Source of the DNA: an uncultured Pseudodesulfovibrio sp.
Lineage (GTDB): Bacteria > Desulfobacterota > Desulfovibrionia > Desulfovibrionales > Desulfovibrionaceae
DNA: 64,000 bases
NCBI RefSeq assembly: GCF_963677845.1
Contig: NZ_OY782498.1
Coordinates: 2,177,518-2,241,517 of the forward strand
Direction: 5' to 3'
Positions 1-58,548 of the stretch are shown here, piece by piece (position 1 is the stretch's first letter; each line of letters starts with the position of its first letter). The notes beneath the pieces were generated by a model. It was not told the origin of the DNA. It searched no databases and saw only the letters and a program-made list of their open reading frames with translations. The position numbers were made by a program, and so were the translations under genes.

Positions 1-1172
1 ATAACGCGACCAGCAATCTCCACTTCCATTGGATTGCCCGACACACTTTGCATGCTGAATTCGTGCTTGTCGCACCCGTCATTAAAAACCTTGGTCAAGA
101 ACACCGCTATTTCATCAACATCATCAGGAACCATAATCTGACCAAGATTTACAACGTCATCCTGATCTGGAAACAAAAGGAATGATTGAGCACGCTCATT
201 GGCGTGTAAAATATCACCAGCTTCATTAACCAAAAAAATTACATCAGGAGAAGATTCGATTAAATCACGATACCGTTGTTCTGTCCGGCGCAAATCGCTG
301 GCGGCCTTGTCCACTCGACGTTTGAGCGAGACATTCCACAAAACAATACCTATAAAAATCAAACCGACTATCGCCACAGCGATGGCAATATGTTTGGCAT
401 AATAAGCAAGGCCGTCCCTTCGCGAATGCTCACCAAACCATTTATCTCGCAACTGAGCCAAATGTCCGGTTTCCCGCAAGTGCCGCACGGCAGACATCAG
501 GTCAGCAGCAAACTGCCTGTCGTGGCGTGAAACAGACAGCCCAAGAGGCACTTCGCCCAAAACCTTCCCTTTTTTCTCGATATTCGAAAAACCATTCTGA
601 TCAATCAGGTAATCCGCCACCCTCTCGGACGGCGCCACAAAAATTTCAACAACACCCTGATCAAGCATACTCAAGGCTTCAAGCGGAGAGGTCACTTTAA
701 TCACATCATTGCCGAACTCGACTTCCGGGCTATAGGGAGCCCCGGTAATAGCCACCACACGCTTGCCAACGAGTTTATTTAAATTATTAACCACTGGACT
801 CTTCGTGTTGACGAAAAGGTGATTACGCAGGCTGTATCCAAGCGGAATAAAAACAAATGAAGAACGGGAAGACGGGCGTGATCCGTGTGCCATGAGGTCA
901 AGTTGCCCGTCTGCATACATGCGAGGGTAATCAACCAGACTATCTACAAGAACAAATTCGATATCCGCATCAAGCAGTTCACCAAGCAAAACCCATTCAT
1001 CGATGGAATAACCACGAACCCCTTGTTCACCATCCTGCATGGCAAGAAATGAAAATGGTGGAGATATAGCCCGAATACCAACTTTGCAAGTCTCACGACA
1101 CCATGCATTGCCAGCTGAAAAAAACAGAACAAACGCCATAAGGATTAGGCTGAGGTAAACAAAGCGGCGCAT
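1..1172 (-). CDS. Periplasmic solute-binding/PAS sensor protein, truncated by window edge
   Basis: About 390 residues are visible; the C-terminus lies beyond position 1. Translating from the ATG at 1172 gives a signal or anchor segment (residues 1-23), a SBP_bac_3-type solute-binding domain (about 28-248, including LDLMAHGSRP and an ending in LRDKWF), a membrane helix at 261-281, a short linker, and a PAS domain starting near 300 (YRDLIESSPDVIFLVNEAGD). This order is known from membrane histidine kinases and diguanylate cyclases that sense amino-acid-like ligands through a periplasmic binding domain; the output domain is not in the window. It lies 148 bp downstream of the selenoprotein gene on the same strand, so it could be the last gene of that operon or separate. 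No clear Shine-Dalgarno sequence precedes the start. Confidence 0.8.
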   Translation of the reverse strand, partial: MRRFVYLSLILMAFVLFFSAGNAWCRETCKVGIRAISPPFSFLAMQDGEQGVRGYSIDEWVLLGELLDADIEFVLVDSLVDYPRMYADGQLDLMAHGSRPSSRSSFVFIPLGYSLRNHLFVNTKSPVVNNLNKLVGKRVVAITGAPYSPEVEFGNDVIKVTSPLEALSMLDQGVVEIFVAPSERVADYLIDQNGFSNIEKKGKVLGEVPLGLSVSRHDRQFAADLMSAVRHLRETGHLAQLRDKWFGEHSRRDGLAYYAKHIAIAVAIVGLIFIGIVLWNVSLKRRVDKAASDLRRTEQRYRDLIESSPDVIFLVNEAGDILHANERAQSFLLFPDQDDVVNLGQIMVPDDVDEIAVFLTKVFNDGCDKHEFSMQSVSGNPMEVEIAGRV

Positions 1173-1320
1173 GCCGGTTCCATAACGCAAAGAACCACTA
1201 TGCACCAGCCCGTACAACGCCCGTTTCCCGAAGACAGGGACTTCCCCCGGCATGTCCATACCAGGGGAAATCTCAGGGAGGAGGTATGATGAATCAATAT
1301 TATTCATCTGGTTATGGTGA

Positions 1321-2019
1321 CTACTTTGCCTGACCAATCAACACGGCCTTATACCCTTTGCCTATGTCATTTCTGGCATCGGAATAGACCATGATGATAT
1401 CCATGAACCGACCGGACTTATTCGGTGTGACTAAGAACTCGACGGGTGCGGTCTGCCCGGCTTCGAGTTTCAGAGAGCCCTGCCAGTACGTTGTTTTAAA
1501 CTTGCGCGACTTGATTGCCGTCACAATCATGGGCGCGTCTCCAGCATTCTTGATCATGATTTTAGCAGGAGTCGCCTTACCGTTGCTCAAACCATCTACT
1601 GAGGTCTTGCGTGGGGTTACTTCCATAACCCCCATGGGGATCGGCTCAACATAACCAACGATATGAATTATCTGCTGGTTCGCTTTACTTTCGCCTGTGC
1701 TGACCGTCACGGTCTTATCGAATTTCCCCGGATACTTGAACGTGTTATAGCTGATGACCATTCCAACAGATTCGCCAGGGTTGATGCTGCTCTGTCCCAG
1801 AGCAGTTGTGGTGCAACTTCACGACGTCGTCACGTTCTTAATCGTGACAACCTCCTTGCTGACATTGGTGAGCATCACCGTTTTGCTGGCAACAGGCCCT
1901 TCGATCATGGAACCGAAATCAACCTTCATATCACTGATGGAAACGGGCTGGGCCGCCATTGCCGAAGAGGCAAACAGCAAACCAAGCACCAGAGCCATAA
2001 GCTGAATTTTCTTGAACAT
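1321..2019 (-). CDS. DUF1573-family exported protein with in-frame TGA read as selenocysteine
   Basis: The frame from ATG 2019 (AAGGACT ribosome site) encodes a signal peptide (residues 1-22, ending AMA) and a DUF1573-type beta domain (SDMKVDFGSMIEGPVASK). It meets TGA at 1819-1821 (codon 67) and continues in the same frame to TAG at 1321, giving 232 residues. Around the TGA the product reads TTS-U-SCTTTALG. DUF1573 proteins normally have a CxC motif followed by Thr here, so TGA replaces the first Cys. No frameshift is needed, and the downstream part (INPGES, then a second Ig-like domain) aligns with the family. A perfect hairpin begins 13 bases after the TGA. The gene ends a seven-gene operon and starts 9 bp after the tetraheme cytochrome. 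Likely location is the periplasm with a redox or metal-linked role; the substrate is unknown. The alternative, a nonsense mutation in a Cys protein, is less likely given the hairpin and Sec use in fdhA. Confidence 0.85.
1787..1805 (-). promoter_or_regulatory. Bacterial SECIS hairpin of the DUF1573 selenoprotein
   Basis: On the minus strand the mRNA forms CUGCUCU-GGGAC-AGAGCAG, a perfect 7-bp stem with a 5-base loop. Twenty bases separate the UGA (1819-1821) from the loop, and the loop starts with G. Both fit the known bacterial SECIS pattern (stem directly after UGA, G among the first loop bases, loop roughly 16-37 bases from UGA). The fdhA hairpin in this window has the same CUCU-GGG-A core. 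Confidence 0.8.
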
Positions 2020-2028
2020 AGTGAGTCC

Positions 2029-2487
2029 TTACTTTTTCCCGTGAACGAACCGGGATTTCAAACTGTAGTCAAAATTCTTATCCTGCCCTTCGGTATGACA
2101 GGTGCGGCAATTATCCTCACCGGGCTTCCCGATAATATCCTTGGGGTCCTCGGACTCGGTATGAGCCAACCCCGGACCATGGCAGGATTCACACTGAACA
2201 TCCTTGAGTTCAGGGGTCAGTTCCATGTCAATGAAGCCGCCGTCCGCATCCATTGCCACCACGTGACATTGGACACATCCTTGCACCTGTTGCTTTTCCT
2301 CGCCCTGCTCCTTGAGGGTCTCGAAAGCGTGCGCATGCGGGGTCGTCTTCCACCCCTCCACGATCTCAGCGTGGCAGTCCGCACACGCTGTGTACCCCAC
2401 GTAATCGCCAAAAAGTTCGGCATTGGCAGCCGAAACCAACGACAAGACAAAGAAAATGGCAACGATGCTGAGCACAAGGCGATTCAT
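2029..2487 (-). CDS. Exported tetraheme c-type cytochrome (cytochrome c554-like)
   Basis: This 152-residue protein has a signal peptide (1-23) and four CxxCH heme sites: C35-H39, C71-H75, C99-H103 and C127-H131. The pattern GYTACADCH, CVQCH, CESCHGPG, CRTCH resembles cytochrome c554/c-prime type domains (CESCHGPG is characteristic) rather than cytochrome c3. It should sit in the periplasm and pass electrons. It is 9 bp downstream of the HhH gene and 9 bp upstream of the selenoprotein gene, so the two are probably co-translated and may be redox partners; that pairing is inference. Confidence 0.9.
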   Translation of the reverse strand: MNRLVLSIVAIFFVLSLVSAANAELFGDYVGYTACADCHAEIVEGWKTTPHAHAFETLKEQGEEKQQVQGCVQCHVVAMDADGGFIDMELTPELKDVQCESCHGPGLAHTESEDPKDIIGKPGEDNCRTCHTEGQDKNFDYSLKSRFVHGKK

Positions 2488-2496
2488 GATATATCC

Positions 2497-2799
2497 CTAA
2501 CAGTTACAAGATGATGCAGGTTCCAAAAACAAGAACTTGCTCAGTTTACGCAATAAGGTGGAATCAATGCCGTCCACATCAAGCAATTCATCCATATCCA
2601 CGAACTCTTCATTTTCAGTACGCAACTCGATAATTGCCTCGGCCATGGGCTGATCAATGCCGTCGATGGCAAGCAACTGCTCCACGGTTGCGGTATTAAG
2701 ATTAAGCTTGCCATCATTGTCACCGGCAAAAGCGGGAACAGAGGCTATGGCAATGGTCAACATAAGGATCAATGCGATGATGATATTTTTCATTTTCAT
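2497..2799 (-). CDS. Exported ComEA-like helix-hairpin-helix protein
   Basis: The product has 100 residues: a signal peptide (1-25, ending AFA) and one ComEA-type double helix-hairpin-helix (LNLNTATVEQLLAIDGI, then DELLDVDGI). It ends in an unusual Cys-Asn-Cys tail. In known ComEA proteins this fold binds DNA at the cell surface during uptake, but no competence genes are seen here. Many small exported HhH proteins of this kind have no assigned role. It sits between a tiny membrane protein and a tetraheme cytochrome, so a redox or metal role for the CxC tail is possible but unproven. The stop is TAG. Confidence 0.8.
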   Translation of the reverse strand: MKMKNIIIALILMLTIAIASVPAFAGDNDGKLNLNTATVEQLLAIDGIDQPMAEAIIELRTENEEFVDMDELLDVDGIDSTLLRKLSKFLFLEPASSCNC

Positions 2800-2810: not shown

Positions 2811-3014
2811 TTACCAGCCGAGATAGTGATGGCTGTACAAAACGGACCAGACCAGACAGGAAACAGTTCCGCTGGCTATTCCGGAAAACACTTTTTTTGC
2901 GAATGATGTGGTGCCCCTATGAGCCTTAAACGCGCCCATATACAAGGCTGCGGAAGACATAAGGACCAACAAAACAGCGACCAATGGCAGAATGACGTAG
3001 TAGATGCCATGCAT
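2811..3014 (-). CDS. Small membrane protein, unknown function
   Basis: A 67-residue protein with two hydrophobic segments (about residues 5-27 and 43-60) and a basic loop between them. A strong ribosome site (GGAGGGC) precedes ATG 3014. Spacing is 12 bp to the gene before and 11 bp to the gene after. I do not recognise the family. Its position in the operon and good initiation signal argue that it is real; it may be a small subunit of the YeiH-like membrane protein or of the electron-transfer partners. Confidence 0.65.
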   Translation of the reverse strand: MHGIYYVILPLVAVLLVLMSSAALYMGAFKAHRGTTSFAKKVFSGIASGTVSCLVWSVLYSHHYLGW

Positions 3015-3190: not shown

Positions 3191-4351
3191 TTAGGCCGGA
3201 AGCAGGCCGGTTTTGACGCAAAGCAGGATCACTGCCAACAACAGCGCGATACGAATGAATCCGGCAATACAGGTGACCAAAAATCCTTTGAAGCCATGCT
3301 CACCTATGTCACGGAAGGAAAGGGAAAGCCCAAGAGCACCCGCTGCCAGCGAGAAATCCCACTTGACCATTTCAAAAATGGCATGATGTGCAGGCTCCTT
3401 AAAGACATGCAGGCAGGCCAGCACCCAGAAGAAAATGAACACGCCAAGCCACAACGGGAAAGTCTTGATGCCACGGGTGGCACGGACTTCCTCATTATTC
3501 CTGTTCCGCAATTTGCGAATGAACATGACGATAAAGACGTACAGGAAGCCGGCGGGCATAATCACATGGCGACCAACATCAAACCAGCTTGCCCAACGCC
3601 CAGCCTCGTAACTGTTGCCAAAGGCGGCATAAAGGCCTTGTGTGCCGTTACCGACACCGACAACGGATGCCAGCCCAAAATACTTGGCCGGAATACCGAC
3701 CAGATCACCCAAAACTGGCAGAAGCTGCATGGCAATTAGGCCAAAGACAATGACACAGACAAAGGCGTTGACGACCTGACCGCCCTTGGCTTTGATCAGC
3801 GGCATGAGGATGGCGCAGACATGAGGATCACCTGTAGACAGGCCACCCGCGATGATAGAGCCATGCCGGTCGTCCAACTTGAGCAGTCGGGAGACCCCCA
3901 ATGTCACAGAGGCTGTGACAAACAAGGAGCCGGTGCAAATCAAGATGGGGATCAGGCCTATCTTGAAAGCATGACCGATCATGAAATGCGGGGCCAGCAT
4001 GATGATACCCAACGGCATCAACATATGAATGTAGGACAGTCCACGCTTCCAGCTATCCGGCACACCGAAGATGTTCCCAATAAGCAAACCGAGCAGCAGC
4101 GGATTCCAGACAAAGTTAGAGTTCAATATCTGAAAGAATGACTGATGATTCAGCGGACCGATGACTCCGTCGAGCCATGCAAACAGGTTCTGGAGCGTAA
4201 ACGGGTTCGGCACGCCCGCCAGATTATTGCTGAAGATGGCGACAAAGAACATTGCCAGCAAACCGGGCAACACTTCCTTGAGGCTGTAAAGCGAACTGAA
4301 CCAGGATTTCCTGTTCAAGTCGTAATTCAATGTTGCACTCGAAGTATTCAT
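3191..4351 (-). CDS. YeiH/UPF0324-family integral membrane protein (putative sulfate or anion exporter)
   Basis: About 386 residues with around ten membrane segments. The layout matches the YeiH family (Pfam Cons_hypoth698): an early LLLGLLIGNIFG helix, a central IAGGLSTGDPHVCAILMPLIKAKG segment where the family has its conserved GxSICGxSAI region, and a later GVGNGTQGLYAAFG segment. The family is annotated as putative sulfate exporters on weak evidence. The match is distant, so I assign family membership, not substrate. ATG 4351 is preferred over 4363 because AGGA lies 5 bases before it. It follows the 968-residue exported protein by 31 bp and likely supplies the operon's transport function. 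Confidence 0.65.
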   Translation of the reverse strand: MNTSSATLNYDLNRKSWFSSLYSLKEVLPGLLAMFFVAIFSNNLAGVPNPFTLQNLFAWLDGVIGPLNHQSFFQILNSNFVWNPLLLGLLIGNIFGVPDSWKRGLSYIHMLMPLGIIMLAPHFMIGHAFKIGLIPILICTGSLFVTASVTLGVSRLLKLDDRHGSIIAGGLSTGDPHVCAILMPLIKAKGGQVVNAFVCVIVFGLIAMQLLPVLGDLVGIPAKYFGLASVVGVGNGTQGLYAAFGNSYEAGRWASWFDVGRHVIMPAGFLYVFIVMFIRKLRNRNNEEVRATRGIKTFPLWLGVFIFFWVLACLHVFKEPAHHAIFEMVKWDFSLAAGALGLSLSFRDIGEHGFKGFLVTCIAGFIRIALLLAVILLCVKTGLLPA

Positions 4352-4382
4352 TATATTCCTCATTATTTCTTTTGGATGTCCG

Positions 4383-7289
4383 CTATCGACGGATATGGGC
4401 GGAACCGCCTGTATTCACCGAACCACTCAACTTTTCATGCGGAGCGTGCTGTCCGATACGCCAGTAATCCTTGAAAGCGAGACGAGGCAGCATGGAGAGG
4501 CGCAGGAAACCTTCGATAGTCCCGTTAACCCCCACCAGCACGTCGACGTTATTCCTTGGGCGGAAGGCAAGATTCTCGGTGGAATAATGCTTTTTCCTGT
4601 ACTCGGTCTCAATGTGCCATGCGTGGACCATTTCACCATCAAAGCTATCCACCACGATCGTGAACAACGGCTTGCCGCTCTCATCACGAGGGCCTTCGTA
4701 GACAGGATGTTCCTTGTCCAGAATGATAGTCTCAGGGTTGTCCAAAAGGACTTCGTTGAGCTGATAGCAGTGACCACAAACGTCAGGGCGAACCATGAAA
4801 CGCGGATCATGCTCAAACGGTGTATCTCGCTCCAATTCCTGAATGTCGGTGAAGAAGTAGAGATTGACCTTGCCGTCCTTGAAGGGCTTTTTCACATCCA
4901 GTTCAGCCATCACTGAACCATACTTGAACTGCATGGTCTGGGCGACATCCTGATGCTGGGGCAGCAGCTCTTTGGCTGCAGCGTCCAGCGGACCGAGGGT
5001 CTTGGAATCAACATGATTACCGTTGGCATCCAACAGGGTCAGTTCCACGGTTCCGGCTGCGGCATCAAAACCATTCAGCTGCAATGTAAACTCACCAAGC
5101 TTTGCGGTTTCCCCGATAGCCAGAGAGTGCCCCTTGGGCTTGTTGAAGGTGTAGCTGATGGCCTGAATCGACGGCGTGCCGAATTCCTTGATCTTCACGT
5201 AATTGGAACCAATGTACTCCGGCACAATATAGGTTGCCCCTTCCGAGAAGACTTCGGGCATGTAGTAGCGATTGCCCGCCTTTTCATCTTCATTGAAGCC
5301 TTGCGCAAGATAGAAATGTGCGCCCCAGCGGTTGCCGGAATATTTCATGAGAGAAAGAGAAGCCACCGGACGGTCATCCAGATACGTGTGGCCGGTATAC
5401 CGGAGTGCCTTGTTGCGCACGCCAAGCATCTCATCCTGCCAGTACATCAAGTTGCCATCGCCCATGGGCTGATTTTTCCAGAAATCCAAATCCAAGTTTT
5501 TGCGAACAAACGTACCAGAAGTGAATGTTGCCAAATAAGCACGTTTGCCAAGCATGAAGAAGGACTCGCCTGCCAGCGTGCGGATATTTCGCGCATTGCG
5601 GGAGGTGTAGCAGAGGCCGGCAGGCGGAATGACGATACGATTATTTTTGTAATCGACATAACTACCGCGAATAACGATGGCCTCGGCGGACAACAGTTTT
5701 TCCCGTTTACGATTACGCGAAGTTTTGCGCATCAATCCTTTGAGACGAGGCACAAAAGGCGCGGTGTGATCCGGCTCGTAAAAAGATGAATTGGGGACAA
5801 TCTTGGGATAGGAAGTAAAACGAGATTCCTCAACCACTGTGCCGTATGAAGAATCGGCAAGACGTGTAAGGAAACTGCCTTCGATCATCGGCTCAAGAAC
5901 CGGTGAAGAACCGAGAAAGAAATCAAGATTTGTCCTACCTTCGTCGGCCCACATAACCATATTATCCGTCCGCATCATATAATAATCGCGAACGTACAAA
6001 TTACGAACCACGTCGCCTTCAAATTTGTTGGCAACCACTTTAAACGCGGGACGATTCCAAATTTCGGAATATTTCACAGGCCCGTCAAAACTGTCATTCT
6101 CATTGTCGAAAACCAACACGTCATTGTTCTCAATAAGGAGACGCTGCAACATTCCTGTCTTGAGGTTCGGCTCAAGCACAACAGAATACCGAGAATCCAA
6201 GGGCCAGTCCTGACCGTTTTTCACGGTGACGAGGTCGCGATAGACAACAAAGGAAAAATGACCGGTTGAATATCCATGGGACTTGCTGGTGGCCCAAGGA
6301 ACAAAATCAGAATCCTTGAGGAAACTCGGATCCATGACAATCTCAACACGCATATCCAACTCGGGAATCGTCAGGTTGTACTTGTCCTTTTCCCCCATCC
6401 GTGACTTGTACTCCTGCGCAGATGTCGGCTTGACCAATTTCTCGGCCAGCACTTCGCTTCCAGTAAAGTTGGTGACCTTCACCATAAAACCATCAGGCTG
6501 GCGGTAAGCATAGATGCGCTTGTCACCATAGAAACGATAGTCTTCCTGGCGTACTTCCAGAATTATTGGACGCTGCATGGAAAAAGTCGCATCCGTGATT
6601 TCTGGAAATTCAATGGACTCAAACACGGCATCGTCAAAATCGATCTTGCTGGCCACATACTTGCTGGCACCGAAATAATAGGTGTTGTCCAGATAGAAAT
6701 TCTCCAACTGGGAATTCAATCCTTCCTTGAGAGAAAGCTGACGGACCTCTTCACGCTTGGGAAACACGGTTGAAATAGGAAATTCAAGCGGCCATCCACC
6801 AGACGGAGACATCACAGCCAGTTCGGCATACGGCTTTTCATAGTGGTCCGTGGAATAATCGAACCAGAGGCGGTACCCGGTGTCACCCAGCGGTTTCCGG
6901 TCACCCTTCTTGAGAGCGAAATCCTTAAAGACTCGCTTGGTAGAATTAAGGTCTACAAGATACGCGTGTTCGCCCAACACAAGAAATGGATCGCGCATGA
7001 AAGGTCGAGCATCGTGGGATGTTTCGGAAAGGTAGAACAACCCGCCGGGTTGAACTGTGGCTTTGCCATCCTTGATTTCGCTGCCGCGCATGATAATGGC
7101 TTCGGACAAATGCTTTTTCTGTCCGTACTGGTTCTTGTAAACCTTGTTTCGCAAGCCTGCCAGATGCGGCAAAAAAGTCATATCCGCTGCCGGGGACAAC
7201 CCATGCGGATCATTGGCGGCCAAACCTACTGTAGGTATGGCAAAAAGGATCGCCAACGCGATGGCCAGAAGTCGTACTGTGTTTTTCAT
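4383..7289 (-). CDS. Large exported protein with an internal duplication, unknown function
   Basis: A 968-residue protein with a signal peptide (1-24). It contains a duplicated module: residues about 38-114 (FLPHLAGLRNKVYKNQ, AIIMRGSEI, GGLFYLSE, LVLGEHAYLVDL) recur near 509-585 (FVPRLKGLMRKTSRNR, AIVIRGSYV, AGLCYTSR, FMLGKRAYLATF). A single CGHC pair lies near 836-839; without a following His it is not a heme site and could be a disulfide or metal site. No enzyme family is recognised. It is the first gene of the seven-gene operon (ribosome site AGGAAC before ATG 7289), and its upstream region has a perfect palindrome, TGTCCATGGACA, at 7318-7329. Probable location is periplasm or cell surface. 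Confidence 0.8.
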   Translation of the reverse strand: MKNTVRLLAIALAILFAIPTVGLAANDPHGLSPAADMTFLPHLAGLRNKVYKNQYGQKKHLSEAIIMRGSEIKDGKATVQPGGLFYLSETSHDARPFMRDPFLVLGEHAYLVDLNSTKRVFKDFALKKGDRKPLGDTGYRLWFDYSTDHYEKPYAELAVMSPSGGWPLEFPISTVFPKREEVRQLSLKEGLNSQLENFYLDNTYYFGASKYVASKIDFDDAVFESIEFPEITDATFSMQRPIILEVRQEDYRFYGDKRIYAYRQPDGFMVKVTNFTGSEVLAEKLVKPTSAQEYKSRMGEKDKYNLTIPELDMRVEIVMDPSFLKDSDFVPWATSKSHGYSTGHFSFVVYRDLVTVKNGQDWPLDSRYSVVLEPNLKTGMLQRLLIENNDVLVFDNENDSFDGPVKYSEIWNRPAFKVVANKFEGDVVRNLYVRDYYMMRTDNMVMWADEGRTNLDFFLGSSPVLEPMIEGSFLTRLADSSYGTVVEESRFTSYPKIVPNSSFYEPDHTAPFVPRLKGLMRKTSRNRKREKLLSAEAIVIRGSYVDYKNNRIVIPPAGLCYTSRNARNIRTLAGESFFMLGKRAYLATFTSGTFVRKNLDLDFWKNQPMGDGNLMYWQDEMLGVRNKALRYTGHTYLDDRPVASLSLMKYSGNRWGAHFYLAQGFNEDEKAGNRYYMPEVFSEGATYIVPEYIGSNYVKIKEFGTPSIQAISYTFNKPKGHSLAIGETAKLGEFTLQLNGFDAAAGTVELTLLDANGNHVDSKTLGPLDAAAKELLPQHQDVAQTMQFKYGSVMAELDVKKPFKDGKVNLYFFTDIQELERDTPFEHDPRFMVRPDVCGHCYQLNEVLLDNPETIILDKEHPVYEGPRDESGKPLFTIVVDSFDGEMVHAWHIETEYRKKHYSTENLAFRPRNNVDVLVGVNGTIEGFLRLSMLPRLAFKDYWRIGQHAPHEKLSGSVNTGGSAHIRR

Positions 7290-54748: not shown

Positions 54749-55501
54749 TTACGCTTTTGCCTTTGAGCCAAAGCGACCGGCAAGCAAATCACGGCGATTG
54801 ACGCCACTTTTGGCCTGTGCATTTTTCATCATTTTGCTTCCATCCAAAGATGCAAGCAAATTACCATTGTAGCTTTCTGGCGAAGCAGTACATAAGTAAA
54901 TGACACGAACAGACTCAGGGTCTGCAAGGTAAGCATCCGGGTTGGTTTTCTTCACTTCTGCCAAACGTTTTTCCGCGAGGGCGATCATATCTTCACGATC
55001 CCCAAAGTTCATAGTGCCAGTAGGACAACTTTGAACACAGGCAGGAAGAAGGCCAGCTTCTACGCGGTCCAAGCACATATCGCACTTGAACCATTCTCCG
55101 CTCTCTTCGTCCATGCGGGGTACGTTATACGGACACAATTCTTCACTGGTAACCTTGTCACCAATGCCCGAAGTGCGGCTATTCATAACAACAGCCCCAG
55201 TTTTGGGATCTTGTTCAATACCATTTTCGCAGTACATATTCCCGATGGACTTACAAGGAGGTTCGAGACAATGACGGCACTGTTCTGGGAAAAAATTCCA
55301 TTGCAGTTTGCCATTGGCATCACGCTCTTCGTGAAAACGAACAAGACGGATAGTCTTGGAAGACAAGTCTTGTGGATTCTGGTGGGAGCCAACATTGCGC
55401 GTTTTTTCGGCAGGGAGATTTTTCCACTGCTTACATGCAACCTGACAACCTCGACACGCGGTGCAAAGAGTCAGATCAACAAAAAAGCTTTTACCACTCA
55501 T
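54749..55501 (-). CDS. fdhB: Formate dehydrogenase iron-sulfur subunit
   Basis: A 250-residue protein with Cys sets for four [4Fe-4S] clusters: CTACRGCQVACKQW, CRHCLEPPCKS, and CPYNVPRMDEESGEWFKCDMCLDRV with CVQSCPTGTMNFG. It has no signal peptide or C-terminal membrane helix, so it is probably exported with FdhA through Tat and stays soluble in the periplasm. Its start codon overlaps the fdhA stop region (both at 55501), so translation is coupled. Confidence 0.93.
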   Translation of the reverse strand: MSGKSFFVDLTLCTACRGCQVACKQWKNLPAEKTRNVGSHQNPQDLSSKTIRLVRFHEERDANGKLQWNFFPEQCRHCLEPPCKSIGNMYCENGIEQDPKTGAVVMNSRTSGIGDKVTSEELCPYNVPRMDEESGEWFKCDMCLDRVEAGLLPACVQSCPTGTMNFGDREDMIALAEKRLAEVKKTNPDAYLADPESVRVIYLCTASPESYNGNLLASLDGSKMMKNAQAKSGVNRRDLLAGRFGSKAKA

Positions 55502-58500
55502 TATTTATCCCCTTCTTTCCACTTGCGTAAGTTGACCATGAACGCTTTGTATTCAGGAATACCGGTATTTGGGTCACCAACGTTTGGTGTTACAATGTTT
55601 GCAGAATCGCCACCGTCGACAGGTTTCACCCAGCCGTAGTGCCAAGGCATACCGACCATATGAACGTCGTTACCATCAATGTTGAATGGCTGAACTCGTT
55701 CGGTAACCATTGCAATTGCCCATAAGGAACCACGAACACTTTCAATGGTGACTTTTTCACCATTTTCAATACCGCGAAGTTCAGCAAGTTGTGGACTGAT
55801 CTCAACAAACATCTGTGGTTCAGCCTCTACCAACCAGTCACACCAGCGAGTCATAGACCCTGTTTGCCAGTGTTCGGTCACGCGATACGTAGTACCAACG
55901 AACGGGTAGCGTGGATCACATACGGCTTTTTCTTCGCTTTTCACCTGAACCGCTGTCGGATTGTGGAGCGTGCCAGAGAAAGGATGCTTTTCAACAGGAC
56001 ATTCCAATGGTTCATAGTATTCGGGCAGGGGCCCATCAGCGCGACCTGGCCCAAAGAGCTGACCGAAGCCGTTTTTGCGCATGATAAACGGATGCTTGGT
56101 GCCTGGGGCCCAACCACCGTCAGGGACGTCGCCTTCCCATTTCTTACCATTCCATTTGATAACAACTCGTTCCGGGTTCCAAGGTTTGCCCTTTGGATCG
56201 ACGGATGCTCTATTATAGAGGATGCGGCGGTTAACAGGCCAACACCATGTCCAATTCGGGAACAAACCAATCTTCTCCTGAAGAGAAGACTGGCTGGAAT
56301 TATGGCGTTCAGATTTATTTTCAGTGTCACTCACGGAGTTACAATAGAGCCAGTTACCGGATGTGGTGGAGCCATCATCCTGAAGGTATGCAAAGCTGGG
56401 AACCTGCTGCCCTTTCTTAAACTGCTTACCTTTGACGACAGTATCTTTGGTGAACCAACCGTTAATGAGCCTTGCGGTTTGTTGTGCGCTGAACTCCATG
56501 TGACCATGAGTATTTTCCACACACATATTGTCGAAGCTCATGCGGGTGATTGGTTCAGGATATGCTCCACCGTCTTTCTCATAAAGATGGGCCATTTCTT
56601 CCCACAATTCGTGGAAGTAGTGACCATCAGTGAGTACGCCATCTTTGGGTTCTGGCCCAGCATAGCGCCACTGCATCCAACGACCAGAGTTTGAAACCGA
56701 ACCTTCTTTTTCGAGTGCTGTTGCACAAGGGATAAAGAATGTTTCAGTTTTAACTTTGGCAGGATCCATCCCTGGACCTTTCCAAAAGCTCGAGGTTTCA
56801 CAGTCAAAGACGTTGACGTTGACCATCCAATCCAGCTCAGAAAGAGCCTTACGTGTCTTTACAGCGTCAGGACTGGAGCATGCGGGGTTCATGCCCCAAA
56901 TCCATGCACCAGTGAATCCGCCATTGTACATGCGGTCGATAAGTGGAATCCACGAGTATTCGCTTGCCTTATGGTTTTCCAACTTTGGCAGGTAGCTATA
57001 AGCATTTCTTGGATCATCATCAGAGTACATAGCTTTGAGCAAGCTTGCAGAGTACTTAGGATAATTTTGCCACCAGTTTGCACTCTTTGGGTCCTTGGTT
57101 ACAGGCGCAAATTTCTTGTTGTACTGGTCAAGAGTGTCCAGTCCAGCAAGTGGAGTTGCAATATAACCAGGGAGGATATGATACAGGAGAGCGTAGTCAG
57201 TAGACCCCTGAACATTGCACTCGCCGCGCAGTGCGTTAACACCACCACCAGCGATACCGATGTTGCCAAGCATGAGCTGAATCATGGCCATGGCGCGGAT
57301 GTTCTGCACCCCAACGGAGTGCTGAGTCCAACCCATCGCGTACATGATAGTACCAGCTTTTTTCGCAGTACCAGTAGCAGAGTACAATTTGTAGAGTTCA
57401 ATCAAATCTTCAGGGGAAATACCCGACATTTTTGAAACGTTATCTAACGTATAACGTTCGTAATGTTTTTTCATAATCTGAAAAACACAACGGGGGTGTT
57501 CCAAGGATTTGTCCATTTTGGCGACGCCATTGGCGTCCTTTTCAAATGCCCATTTTGATTTATCATAAGAGGCAGTTTCAGGATCAAACCCAGAGAAGAT
57601 GCCATCCTCGTATTTGTACTCTTTACCAACGATAAAAGAAGCGTTGGTGTAATCGCGCATATATTCGAGAAAATAACGTTTATTATCAATAATATACTTA
57701 ATCATACCGCCAAGAACAGCGATATCGGAACCAGAACGAAGCGCAATATGCTTGTCGGAACGAGCGGAGGTACGTGTGAAACGTGGATCAACATGAATGA
57801 TCTTTCCGCCCTTGGCTTGCGCTTTTAAAGCCCATTTAAAGGAAATGGGATGATTTTCGGCAGCATTGCTGCCCATAATCAAAATACAATCACTGTTCTG
57901 TAAATCATTCCAGTGGTTGGTCATCGCACCGCGTCCGAACGACTCTCCCAGAGCCGCAACAGTTGCACTGTGTCAGATACGTGCCTGATGTTCGAGGTAT
58001 ACAATGCCTTGAGAACGCATAAATGCGTGCATGGCGTAACATTCTTCGTTGTCCAATGCAGCAGAACCAAGCGAAGCTACACCCATGTTGCGGTTAACAA
58101 CTTGACCTTTATCGTTCTTTTCTTGGAAAGATTTATCGCGGGATTCTTTAGCAAGCTTGGCGATGCGTTTTTTACACCAGTCCCAGCTTTTCTCTTCCCA
58201 CTCACCAGAATACGGTGCGCGGTAGAGGCATTTACCGGTACGCAATTCATTTTCAGTCATCTGAATAGAACTTGCGCCCTTTGCACAGAGAGAACCTTCA
58301 TTAATGGGGTGGTCGGGATTTCCTTCCACGTTGATGGCTCTTTTGGTCTCTAAAGAGGTAGTAACCACCAATCCACAACCAACAGAACAATAAGCACAAA
58401 CAGAAGTCGTTTGCTTGCTCCATTGAGGCTTCATCTGAGCGAATTTATCGACCGCTGTCCTTTTACATCCAGCACCGAGGCCAGCAAAGGCTACGCCAAG

Positions 58501-58548
58501 CGCTGCTGATGAAGACAGCTTTACAAAGTCACGACGATTCAATTTCAT
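55501..58548 (-). CDS. fdhA: Selenocysteine formate dehydrogenase catalytic subunit
   Basis: A 1015-residue Mo/W-bis-MGD enzyme oxidising formate to CO2. A Tat signal (MKLNRRDFVKLSSSAALG) is followed by the [4Fe-4S] motif (CAYCSVGCGLVV, then LCAKGASS). The in-frame TGA at 57973-57975 encodes Sec192 in HQARI-U-HSATVAALGESFGRGAMTNHW, the catalytic position of the family, so the two apparent frames are one gene. A SECIS hairpin follows. Later segments (GSNAAENHPISFKWA, GMNPACSSPDAV, QTGSMTRW) match Desulfovibrio FdhA. AAGGATTACGGA precedes the ATG. The operon order is small ORF, fdhA, fdhB, cytochrome c3. Confidence 0.97.
57940..57956 (-). promoter_or_regulatory. SECIS hairpin of fdhA
   Basis: On the minus strand CGGCUCU-GGG-AGAGUCG forms a 7-bp stem (one G:U) with its loop 23 bases after the UGA. 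It shares the CUCU-GGG-A core with the DUF1573 hairpin. Confidence 0.8.

What the first reader, a model, noticed from the sequence alone, without database searches (positions are those of the whole stretch)
1321..2019. DUF1573 selenoprotein: TGA at the first Cys of the CxC motif, with SECIS hairpin
The DUF1573 frame is interrupted by one TGA (1819-1821) that falls on the first Cys of the family CxC-T motif. The reading frame then continues without shift into normal family sequence. A 7-bp perfect hairpin with G-first loop starts 13 bases later, within the spacing known for bacterial SECIS. The fdhA gene in the same window proves the host decodes UGA as Sec and has a hairpin with the same CUCU-GGG-A core. 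I do not recall DUF1573 among described selenoprotein families, so this may be a new one, with a U-x-C redox motif in the periplasm.
Basis: partly seen in the sequence, partly recalled or inferred. Interest (0 to 1): 0.92.

Follow-up and report, generated by a model that had tools for sequence, protein, structure and literature searches.

The report
DUF1573 selenoprotein in conserved redox operon

Summary
On the minus strand, window 2019-1321 encodes a 232-codon DUF1573 protein with one in-frame UGA (1819-1821) at the first Cys of its C-x-C motif, followed by an 8-bp SECIS hairpin. In all 19 rows of this branch the site is UGA (12) or Cys (7); the UGA rows keep the hairpin with compensatory changes, the Cys rows lack it, and selA, selB, selC and selD are present. 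The novelty claim is not right: DUF1573 (OS_HP2, pfam07610) is a listed selenoprotein family. New here: the gene belongs to a separate branch (50 bits against the cut-off of 100 of NCBI's OS_HP2 model) and to a conserved operon: a 968-residue secreted protein with invariant CGHC, a YeiH-type transporter, a small membrane protein, a secreted helix-hairpin-helix protein that ends in Cys-Asn-Cys, and a tetrahaem cytochrome. In 5 of 6 distant relatives of the 968-residue protein UGA stands at the first Cys of that site, a probable further selenoprotein family. I propose a periplasmic selenol/thiol electron relay; partners and substrate are inferred, not shown.

The parts
1321..2019 (-). DUF1573 selenoprotein gene (232 codons; Sec at codon 67), two Ig/ASH-like domains
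1819..1821 (-). in-frame UGA (Sec) at the first position of the U/C-x-C motif
1787..1805 (-). SECIS hairpin, 8 bp, loop GGA, starting 13 bases after the UGA
2029..2487 (-). small tetrahaem cytochrome c (Cytochrome_C554 type; four CxxCH by inspection), ends 9 bases before the DUF1573 start codon
2497..2799 (-). ComEA-like helix-hairpin-helix protein (secreted by inspection) ending in invariant Cys-Asn-Cys
2811..2957 (-). small membrane protein (F15), conserved in the operon; its start is uncertain and may lie about 50 bases further upstream
3191..4363 (-). YeiH-type transporter (PF03601, 87.6 bits; NCBI's YeiH model only 40.1 of 232.6)
4383..7289 (-). 968-residue protein (F4; secreted by inspection) with two related halves and invariant CGHC (residues 838-841); no family model; most distant relatives found have UxxC
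1..1295 (-). the part inside the window of the sensor histidine kinase gene (SBP_bac_3, PAS, HisKA, HATPase) that follows; an NtrC-type regulator and arylsulfotransferase-like genes lie beyond the window

Best explanation
The UGA at 1819-1821 is read as selenocysteine with the help of the SECIS hairpin at 1787-1805, giving a 232-residue exported protein of two Ig-like domains whose first domain carries a Sec-x-Cys pair in a loop (shown by sequence, as far as sequence can). The pair is a redox site, interchangeable with Cys-x-Cys in other members (UGA/Cys exchange is shown; redox use is inferred from it). It works as a periplasmic selenol/thiol carrier encoded with a tetrahaem cytochrome c, exchanging electrons with that cytochrome and with the dithiol sites of its operon partners: the Cys-Asn-Cys tail of the helix-hairpin-helix protein and/or the CGHC site of the 968-residue protein (inferred from conserved gene order and conserved sites only). 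The operon, with a YeiH-type transporter, arylsulfotransferase-like proteins and a two-component system with a periplasmic solute-sensing domain, probably serves handling of a sulfur compound (inferred, weakest step). Confidence by step: Sec decoding 0.97; redox role of the U/C-x-C site 0.8; relay within the operon 0.4; sulfur-compound substrate 0.25 (lowered from 0.3 on re-checking, see full report).
For: UGA in 9 of 15 matches among 60 genomes of the group, the window's own included, and Cys codons in the other 6 at the same site; no TAA or TAG inside any of the 15. Of 57 genes looked at in the site's column, 20 have UGA and 37 a Cys codon. SECIS kept in the 12 UGA rows of this branch with compensatory change, absent in the 7 Cys rows (41% paired). 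Constraint after the UGA: dN/dS 0.10, 0.10 and 0.11 against G025, G035 and G015; G025 and G035 gave the same figures and are not independent; G011 was saturated. selA, selB, selC, selD present, selD itself with an in-frame UGA. Operon: cytochrome directly upstream in 17 of 17 loci of the branch; HHH, small membrane protein, YeiH and F4 in 16 of 17. F4 full length in 12 of 60 genomes, the same 12 that hold this branch. HHH ends in CNC in 16 of 16, one HHH protein in CTC in each of two distant systems. CGHC in 15 of 15 F4 rows, UGA at its first Cys in 5 of 6 distant relatives.
Against: No protein-level evidence of Sec. G106 carries the UGA form, but no tRNA-Sec was found there (98% complete, 350 contigs). 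tRNA-Sec is also present in the 4 genomes with only Cys forms, so its presence does not discriminate. Folding energy alone is not unusual in most UGA rows of the branch (z -3.3 to +1.0). Of 8 UGA rows outside the branch, 7 lack a hairpin that my strict scan tells from shuffles (P 0.115-0.91; the doubtful G351 has 0.04). No interaction, redox potential or substrate was tested; the F4 model is unusable (pLDDT 48). In G085 and G352 F4, YeiH and HHH occur without a detected cytochrome of this type or this DUF1573 branch nearby, and L081 (G383) has the cytochrome and DUF1573 without the rest, so the parts do not always go together. A second F4-like protein of G112 lacks the thiol pair.
Confidence: 0.8

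Rival explanations
1. Sec is incorporated, but the U/C-x-C pair binds a metal or a chalcogen species instead of carrying electrons.
For: C-x-C pairs often bind metals (recalled); the neighbouring HHH protein ends in C-x-C too; several listed selenoprotein families are metal-related, such as mercuric transport proteins and E1-E2 ATPases (PMC9312934, table passage).
Against: Cytochrome gene directly upstream in 17 of 17 loci; CGHC/UxxC in a partner is a dithiol-redox pattern.
Confidence: 0.15
2. The UGA is a true stop: the gene is decayed or makes a short product, with possible restart at the ATG of the 146-residue downstream frame.
For: A downstream frame with an ATG exists (1321-1761).
Against: UGA kept at one column in 12 loci of the branch (11 distinct sequences), covarying hairpin, constraint after the UGA, and no other kind of stop inside the 15 rows.
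Confidence: 0.02
3. Sequencing or assembly error at 1819-1821.
For: One base change separates TGA from a Cys codon.
Against: The same codon in separate genomes G025, G035, G011, G015, G010, G007, G038 and others.
Confidence: 0.01
4. The protein is mainly a structural Ig-like adaptor, and Sec protects a thiol from over-oxidation without any relay.
For: DUF1573 scores with ASH/HYDIN and choice-of-anchor D Ig-like models; the best structural matches are ASH-type domains of cilia proteins.
Against: U or C stands at the motif in at least one domain of all 57 genes looked at, although many are distant.
Confidence: 0.12

Closest known systems
OS_HP2 / DUF1573 selenoprotein family (pfam07610; NCBIfam NF041425)
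   Same: Same domain, UGA at the same first Cys of C-x-C; listed as UxC (PMC2398784) and UGC (PMC9312934, PMC13188914).
   Different: Separate branch (support 100/99); U-S-C or U-A-C in place of U-G-C; 43.2-60.3 bits against cut-off 100 for the 5 members scored (one of them a Cys form), while 5 of 6 UGA members outside the branch pass and the sixth has 97.2; own operon.
SECIS-dependent selenoproteins FdhA and SelD of the same genome
   Same: UGA followed by a G-loop hairpin at like spacing.
   Different: DUF1573 has an Ig-like scaffold and no known enzymatic activity.
Thioredoxin-like selenoproteins Sec.1 and Sec.2 (table rows in PMC9312934)
   Same: CxU / UxC redox motif.
   Different: Thioredoxin family (pfam13192), not Ig-like.
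SoxY-type carriers with a C-terminal Cys arm (recalled, not tested here)
   Same: The HHH partner ends in a C-x-C tail that could serve as a swinging arm.
   Different: HHH fold; no sequence relation was sought.

Membership tests
DUF1573 (PF07610) | Score over the curated cut-off | tested here: met
   85.2 bits against 26.1
OS_HP2 (seleno)protein, NCBIfam NF041425 | Score over the curated cut-off of 100 bits | tested here: not met
   50 bits; 43.2-60.3 for 4 further members of the branch
OS_HP2 (seleno)protein, NCBIfam NF041425 | Sec at the first position of C-x-C in DUF1573 | tested here: met
   UGA at that column
Bacterial selenoprotein | In-frame UGA aligned with Cys of homologues | tested here: met
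Bacterial selenoprotein | SECIS hairpin downstream of the UGA, conserved in UGA forms | tested here: met
Bacterial selenoprotein | selA, selB, selC, selD in the genome | tested here: met
Bacterial selenoprotein | Selenium in the purified protein | not testable with these tools
   needs 75Se labelling or mass spectrometry
Sulfur-carrier system of Sox type | Sequence relation to SoxY or its partners | not tested
   only an analogy drawn from the C-terminal C-x-C tail

The most novel reading that the evidence does not exclude
The operon encodes an undescribed periplasmic selenol/thiol relay in which three secreted proteins carry paired thiols (DUF1573 U/C-x-C, HHH C-terminal C-x-C, F4 CGHC) wired to a tetrahaem cytochrome; two of the three have selenocysteine versions in different lineages, and F4-like proteins are a new selenoprotein family. 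In Pseudodesulfovibrio the Sec and Cys forms are exchanged by recombination of the first domain on a shared second domain.
Probability: 0.38. Interest if true: 0.78.

Novelty: new variant of a known kind. Interest (0 to 1): 0.55.

Why it matters
The selenoprotein form of DUF1573 is broader than the curated family model, so genes of this branch may be missed or called truncated in annotation. A selenoprotein of unknown function gets a fixed set of redox neighbours, which makes its role testable, and a further selenoprotein candidate without any family model comes to light. The tandem Sec and Cys copies with exchanged second domains are a natural experiment on why bacteria keep or drop selenocysteine.

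Tried and rejected
Pseudogene, stop-codon and sequencing-error readings: rejected (see rivals). New-family claim: rejected. Folding energy as a SECIS test: uninformative in most rows. F4 fold: too poor to search. Fold search of DUF1573 gave Ig/ASH-type domains in the rows shown; the sequence search against solved structures had its best hit at E 0.028. Papers on an operon of this kind: searches found none; one search gave one listing that did not look related and was not read. SECIS of the F4-like UGA: strong in G142 (P 0.008), weak in the other four (P 0.22-0.78). Nucleotide windows for the G007 Sec copy are out of register and were not used.

Rows and their fate: the site's column was read in 71 domain rows of 61 frames. 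2 rows had a gap there; 6 rows had Asn (4), Gly or Ser; all 8 are further domains or hits in frames of which another row has U or C. 4 frames are the same genes seen in overlapping loci. That leaves 57 genes (20 UGA, 37 Cys) and the 59 rows of the tree. G351 (L078) has UGA at the column but no second Cys and is doubtful. One search dropped identical stretches (G035 equals G025). One search found 78 of 395 genomes with a match; I read the site only in rows with a fetched locus, so the other stop-free rows and one weak UGA row of G106 (C32) were not examined. L035 (a 5-kb contig that starts inside the cytochrome) was left out of the operon counts, and L034, L036, L037 are records of genomes already counted.

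Full report
Observation. The gene lies on the minus strand, 2019 to 1321. With TGA read as a residue it gives 232 residues with a signal-like start (by eye), one Sec at residue 67 in the context VTTS-U-SCTTT, and a normal TAG end. PF07610 covers residues 28-122 at 85.2 bits. The hairpin begins 13 bases after the TGA: eight pairs with loop GGA.

Homologues. Among 60 genomes (own included), 13 have a match, in 15 rows; 9 rows have one TGA and 6 have no stop inside. Alignment puts each TGA at the same column, where the other 6 have TGC or TGT. One of the 9, G046, is distant and belongs outside the window's branch. In the class, 13 of 348 genomes have the branch at E up to 1e-20. In an even draw of the phylum, 78 of 395 genomes have some DUF1573-like match at E up to 0.001, and 11 of the listed rows have one TGA inside; ten of these I fetched and read. 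In all, the site was read in 57 genes: 20 have UGA and 37 a Cys codon (dropped rows are told under tried and rejected).

SECIS. In 12 UGA loci of this branch (11 distinct) the eight-pair stem is formed in 96.6% of cells; 6 of 8 pairs change on both sides in at least one sequence, 0 of 500 shuffles reach the covariation score (0.489 against 0.164), and no slid register exceeds 0.136. In 7 Cys sequences the same columns pair in 41%. Sequence by sequence, 0 to 4% of 200 shuffles reach the hairpin of the 11 distinct UGA rows, and 30 to 92% that of the 7 Cys rows. Folding energy alone does not tell them apart (z -3.3 to +1.0 in the UGA rows). Outside the branch, 7 of 8 UGA rows have no hairpin that this scan tells from shuffles. 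Constraint after the UGA is strong: dN/dS 0.10 to 0.11 against G025, G035 and G015, the first two with the same figures; G011 was saturated.

Machinery. selB (398 bits, cut-off 242), tRNA-Sec (81.8, cut-off 47), selA (615, cut-off 268) and selD (342, cut-off 125; itself with an in-frame TGA) are in the genome. tRNA-Sec was found in 28 of 29 genomes checked; the miss is G106, which has the UGA form. Since the four Cys-only genomes have it too, this is a compatibility test only.

What is known. DUF1573 is listed as a selenoprotein family: OS_HP2, pfam07610, UxC in the 2008 ocean-survey table (PMC2398784, one passage read), UGC in a 2022 review table (PMC9312934, passages) and in a 2026 review table (PMC13188914, passages). 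The 2007 paper credited there was not held. DUF1573 occurs in 3 papers of the library, and at least one of DUF1573, PF07610 and pfam07610 in 4; PMC10434189 among them was seen in the listing only. So the claim of a new family fails.

Where it differs. On a tree of 59 domain rows the window gene falls in a branch of 19 rows (12 UGA, 7 Cys; support 100/99) apart from the other 40 rows, which hold the U-G-C type; the Sec/Cys label needs 7 changes and starred branches force at least 4. G383 (L081) sits in the branch on a very long end branch and its place is unsure. NCBI's OS_HP2 model gives 5 of 6 UGA members outside the branch 106.6-128.4 bits and the sixth 97.2, but the window protein 50 and four others of the branch 43.2-60.3, all under its cut-off of 100.

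Operon. In 17 loci of the branch I looked for the window's neighbours by tblastn. The tetrahaem cytochrome lies directly upstream in 17 of 17. The HHH protein, the small membrane protein, YeiH and F4 lie further upstream in the same order in 16 of 17 (the exception is L081; F4 is cut by the locus end in three). Kinase and NtrC-type regulator are within the fetched stretch in 14 of 17, in G106 on the other strand, with one more weak partial regulator hit in L039; arylsulfotransferase-like genes in 14 of 17. Some stretches reach only 5 kb. None of these partners was found near 7 UGA loci outside the branch (L029, L073-L077, L079), several of which are short. F4 is full length in 12 of 60 genomes, exactly the 12 with this branch; a thirteenth has a 38-residue fragment.

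Partner sites. The HHH protein ends in Cys-Asn-Cys in 16 of 16 loci. In G085 and G352 one HHH protein ends in Cys-Thr-Cys; a second one of G352 ends in a single Cys. F4 has an invariant CGHC in 15 of 15 rows and no Pfam, NCBIfam or PDB match. In an even draw of the phylum 10 of 395 genomes have F4-like sequence: four with full-length Cys forms, one with fragments off the site, and five (G255, G231, G112, G341: U-S-T-C; G142: U-P-Q-C) with an in-frame TGA at the first Cys of the site. In the first four, which are of one family, about 105 codons follow, with dN/dS 0.06 to 0.15 after the TGA against 0.36 to 0.60 before it. A second, more distant copy in G112 has no such pair, so the site is not general in the superfamily. 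No Pfam model matches the two proteins tried, and no NCBIfam model the three tried beyond a 14-bit hit. This is a candidate new selenoprotein family; the hairpin is clear only in G142.

Sulfur link. Arylsulfotransferase-like genes and a YeiH-type transporter point to sulfur compounds, but both names rest on family resemblance; NCBI's YeiH model is far under its cut-off. In G085 and G352 the F4-YeiH-HHH set lies beside genes of a molybdopterin oxidoreductase with iron-sulfur subunit, with NrfD in G085. On re-checking, the best NCBIfam model for both catalytic subunits is formate dehydrogenase alpha, and no model passes its cut-off; thiosulfate reductase PhsA is third.

Sec and Cys copies. G010 and G007 carry both forms in tandem. 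Within each genome the last part (alignment columns 141-234) is 91% and 96% identical, while columns 26-100 are 60% and 49%. Trees agree: first halves split into a UGA and a Cys side (100/100, 74 columns), while second halves group the tandem copies of both kinds together (95/99) and put the Cys protein of G021 with UGA strains (90/92, short of a star). On the F4 tree the tandem strains lie among Cys-only strains. So first domains of the two kinds appear to be exchanged by recombination on a shared second domain. The direction of change is not settled.

Structure. AlphaFold2 on 14 sequences gives two beta domains at mean pLDDT 89, residue 67 lying between strands 62-65 and 70-74. Foldseek lists mainly ASH/Ig-like domains of cilia proteins and CEP192, with a Porphyromonas protein of unknown function (2qsv) among them.

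Conclusion. The selenoprotein reading is sound. The family is known; I found neither the branch nor its operon described (NCBIfam and Pfam). Shown by sequence: UGA/Cys exchange, SECIS, machinery, operon, invariant thiol sites. Inferred: Sec insertion in vivo, export, redox role, partners, substrate.

Noticed in passing
window 4383-7289 and loci L115-L119: F4, a 968-residue protein without any family model, has an invariant CGHC; in 5 of 6 distant relatives an in-frame TGA stands at its first Cys (UxxC), a candidate new selenoprotein family.
   Followed up: partly
window 2497-2799: ComEA-like helix-hairpin-helix protein whose C-terminal Cys-Asn-Cys is invariant in 16 of 16 loci, with Cys-Thr-Cys in two distant ones.
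   Followed up: partly
L026 (G010) and L027 (G007): Tandem Sec and Cys copies of DUF1573 with near-identical second halves within each genome, a sign of gene conversion.
   Followed up: yes
L083 (own genome, C1:3423424-3424353): selD of this genome itself has an in-frame TGA near the start of the match, followed by a G-loop hairpin.
   Followed up: partly
window 55501-58548: FdhA with in-frame TGA at codon 192 and a SECIS-like hairpin.
   Followed up: partly
L084 1274-6213: Three arylsulfotransferase-like genes in a row beyond the operon's regulator (two confirmed as PF05935, the third by similarity); their role in a sulfate reducer is unclear.
   Followed up: no
L078 (G351): DUF1573-like sequence with TGA at the motif column but Cys before it and no second Cys (C-U-G-A).
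   Followed up: no
L040: A metagenome-assembled record titled Acidobacteria carries F4 to DUF1573 of the operon with the UGA form; transfer and wrong binning could not be told apart.
   Followed up: no
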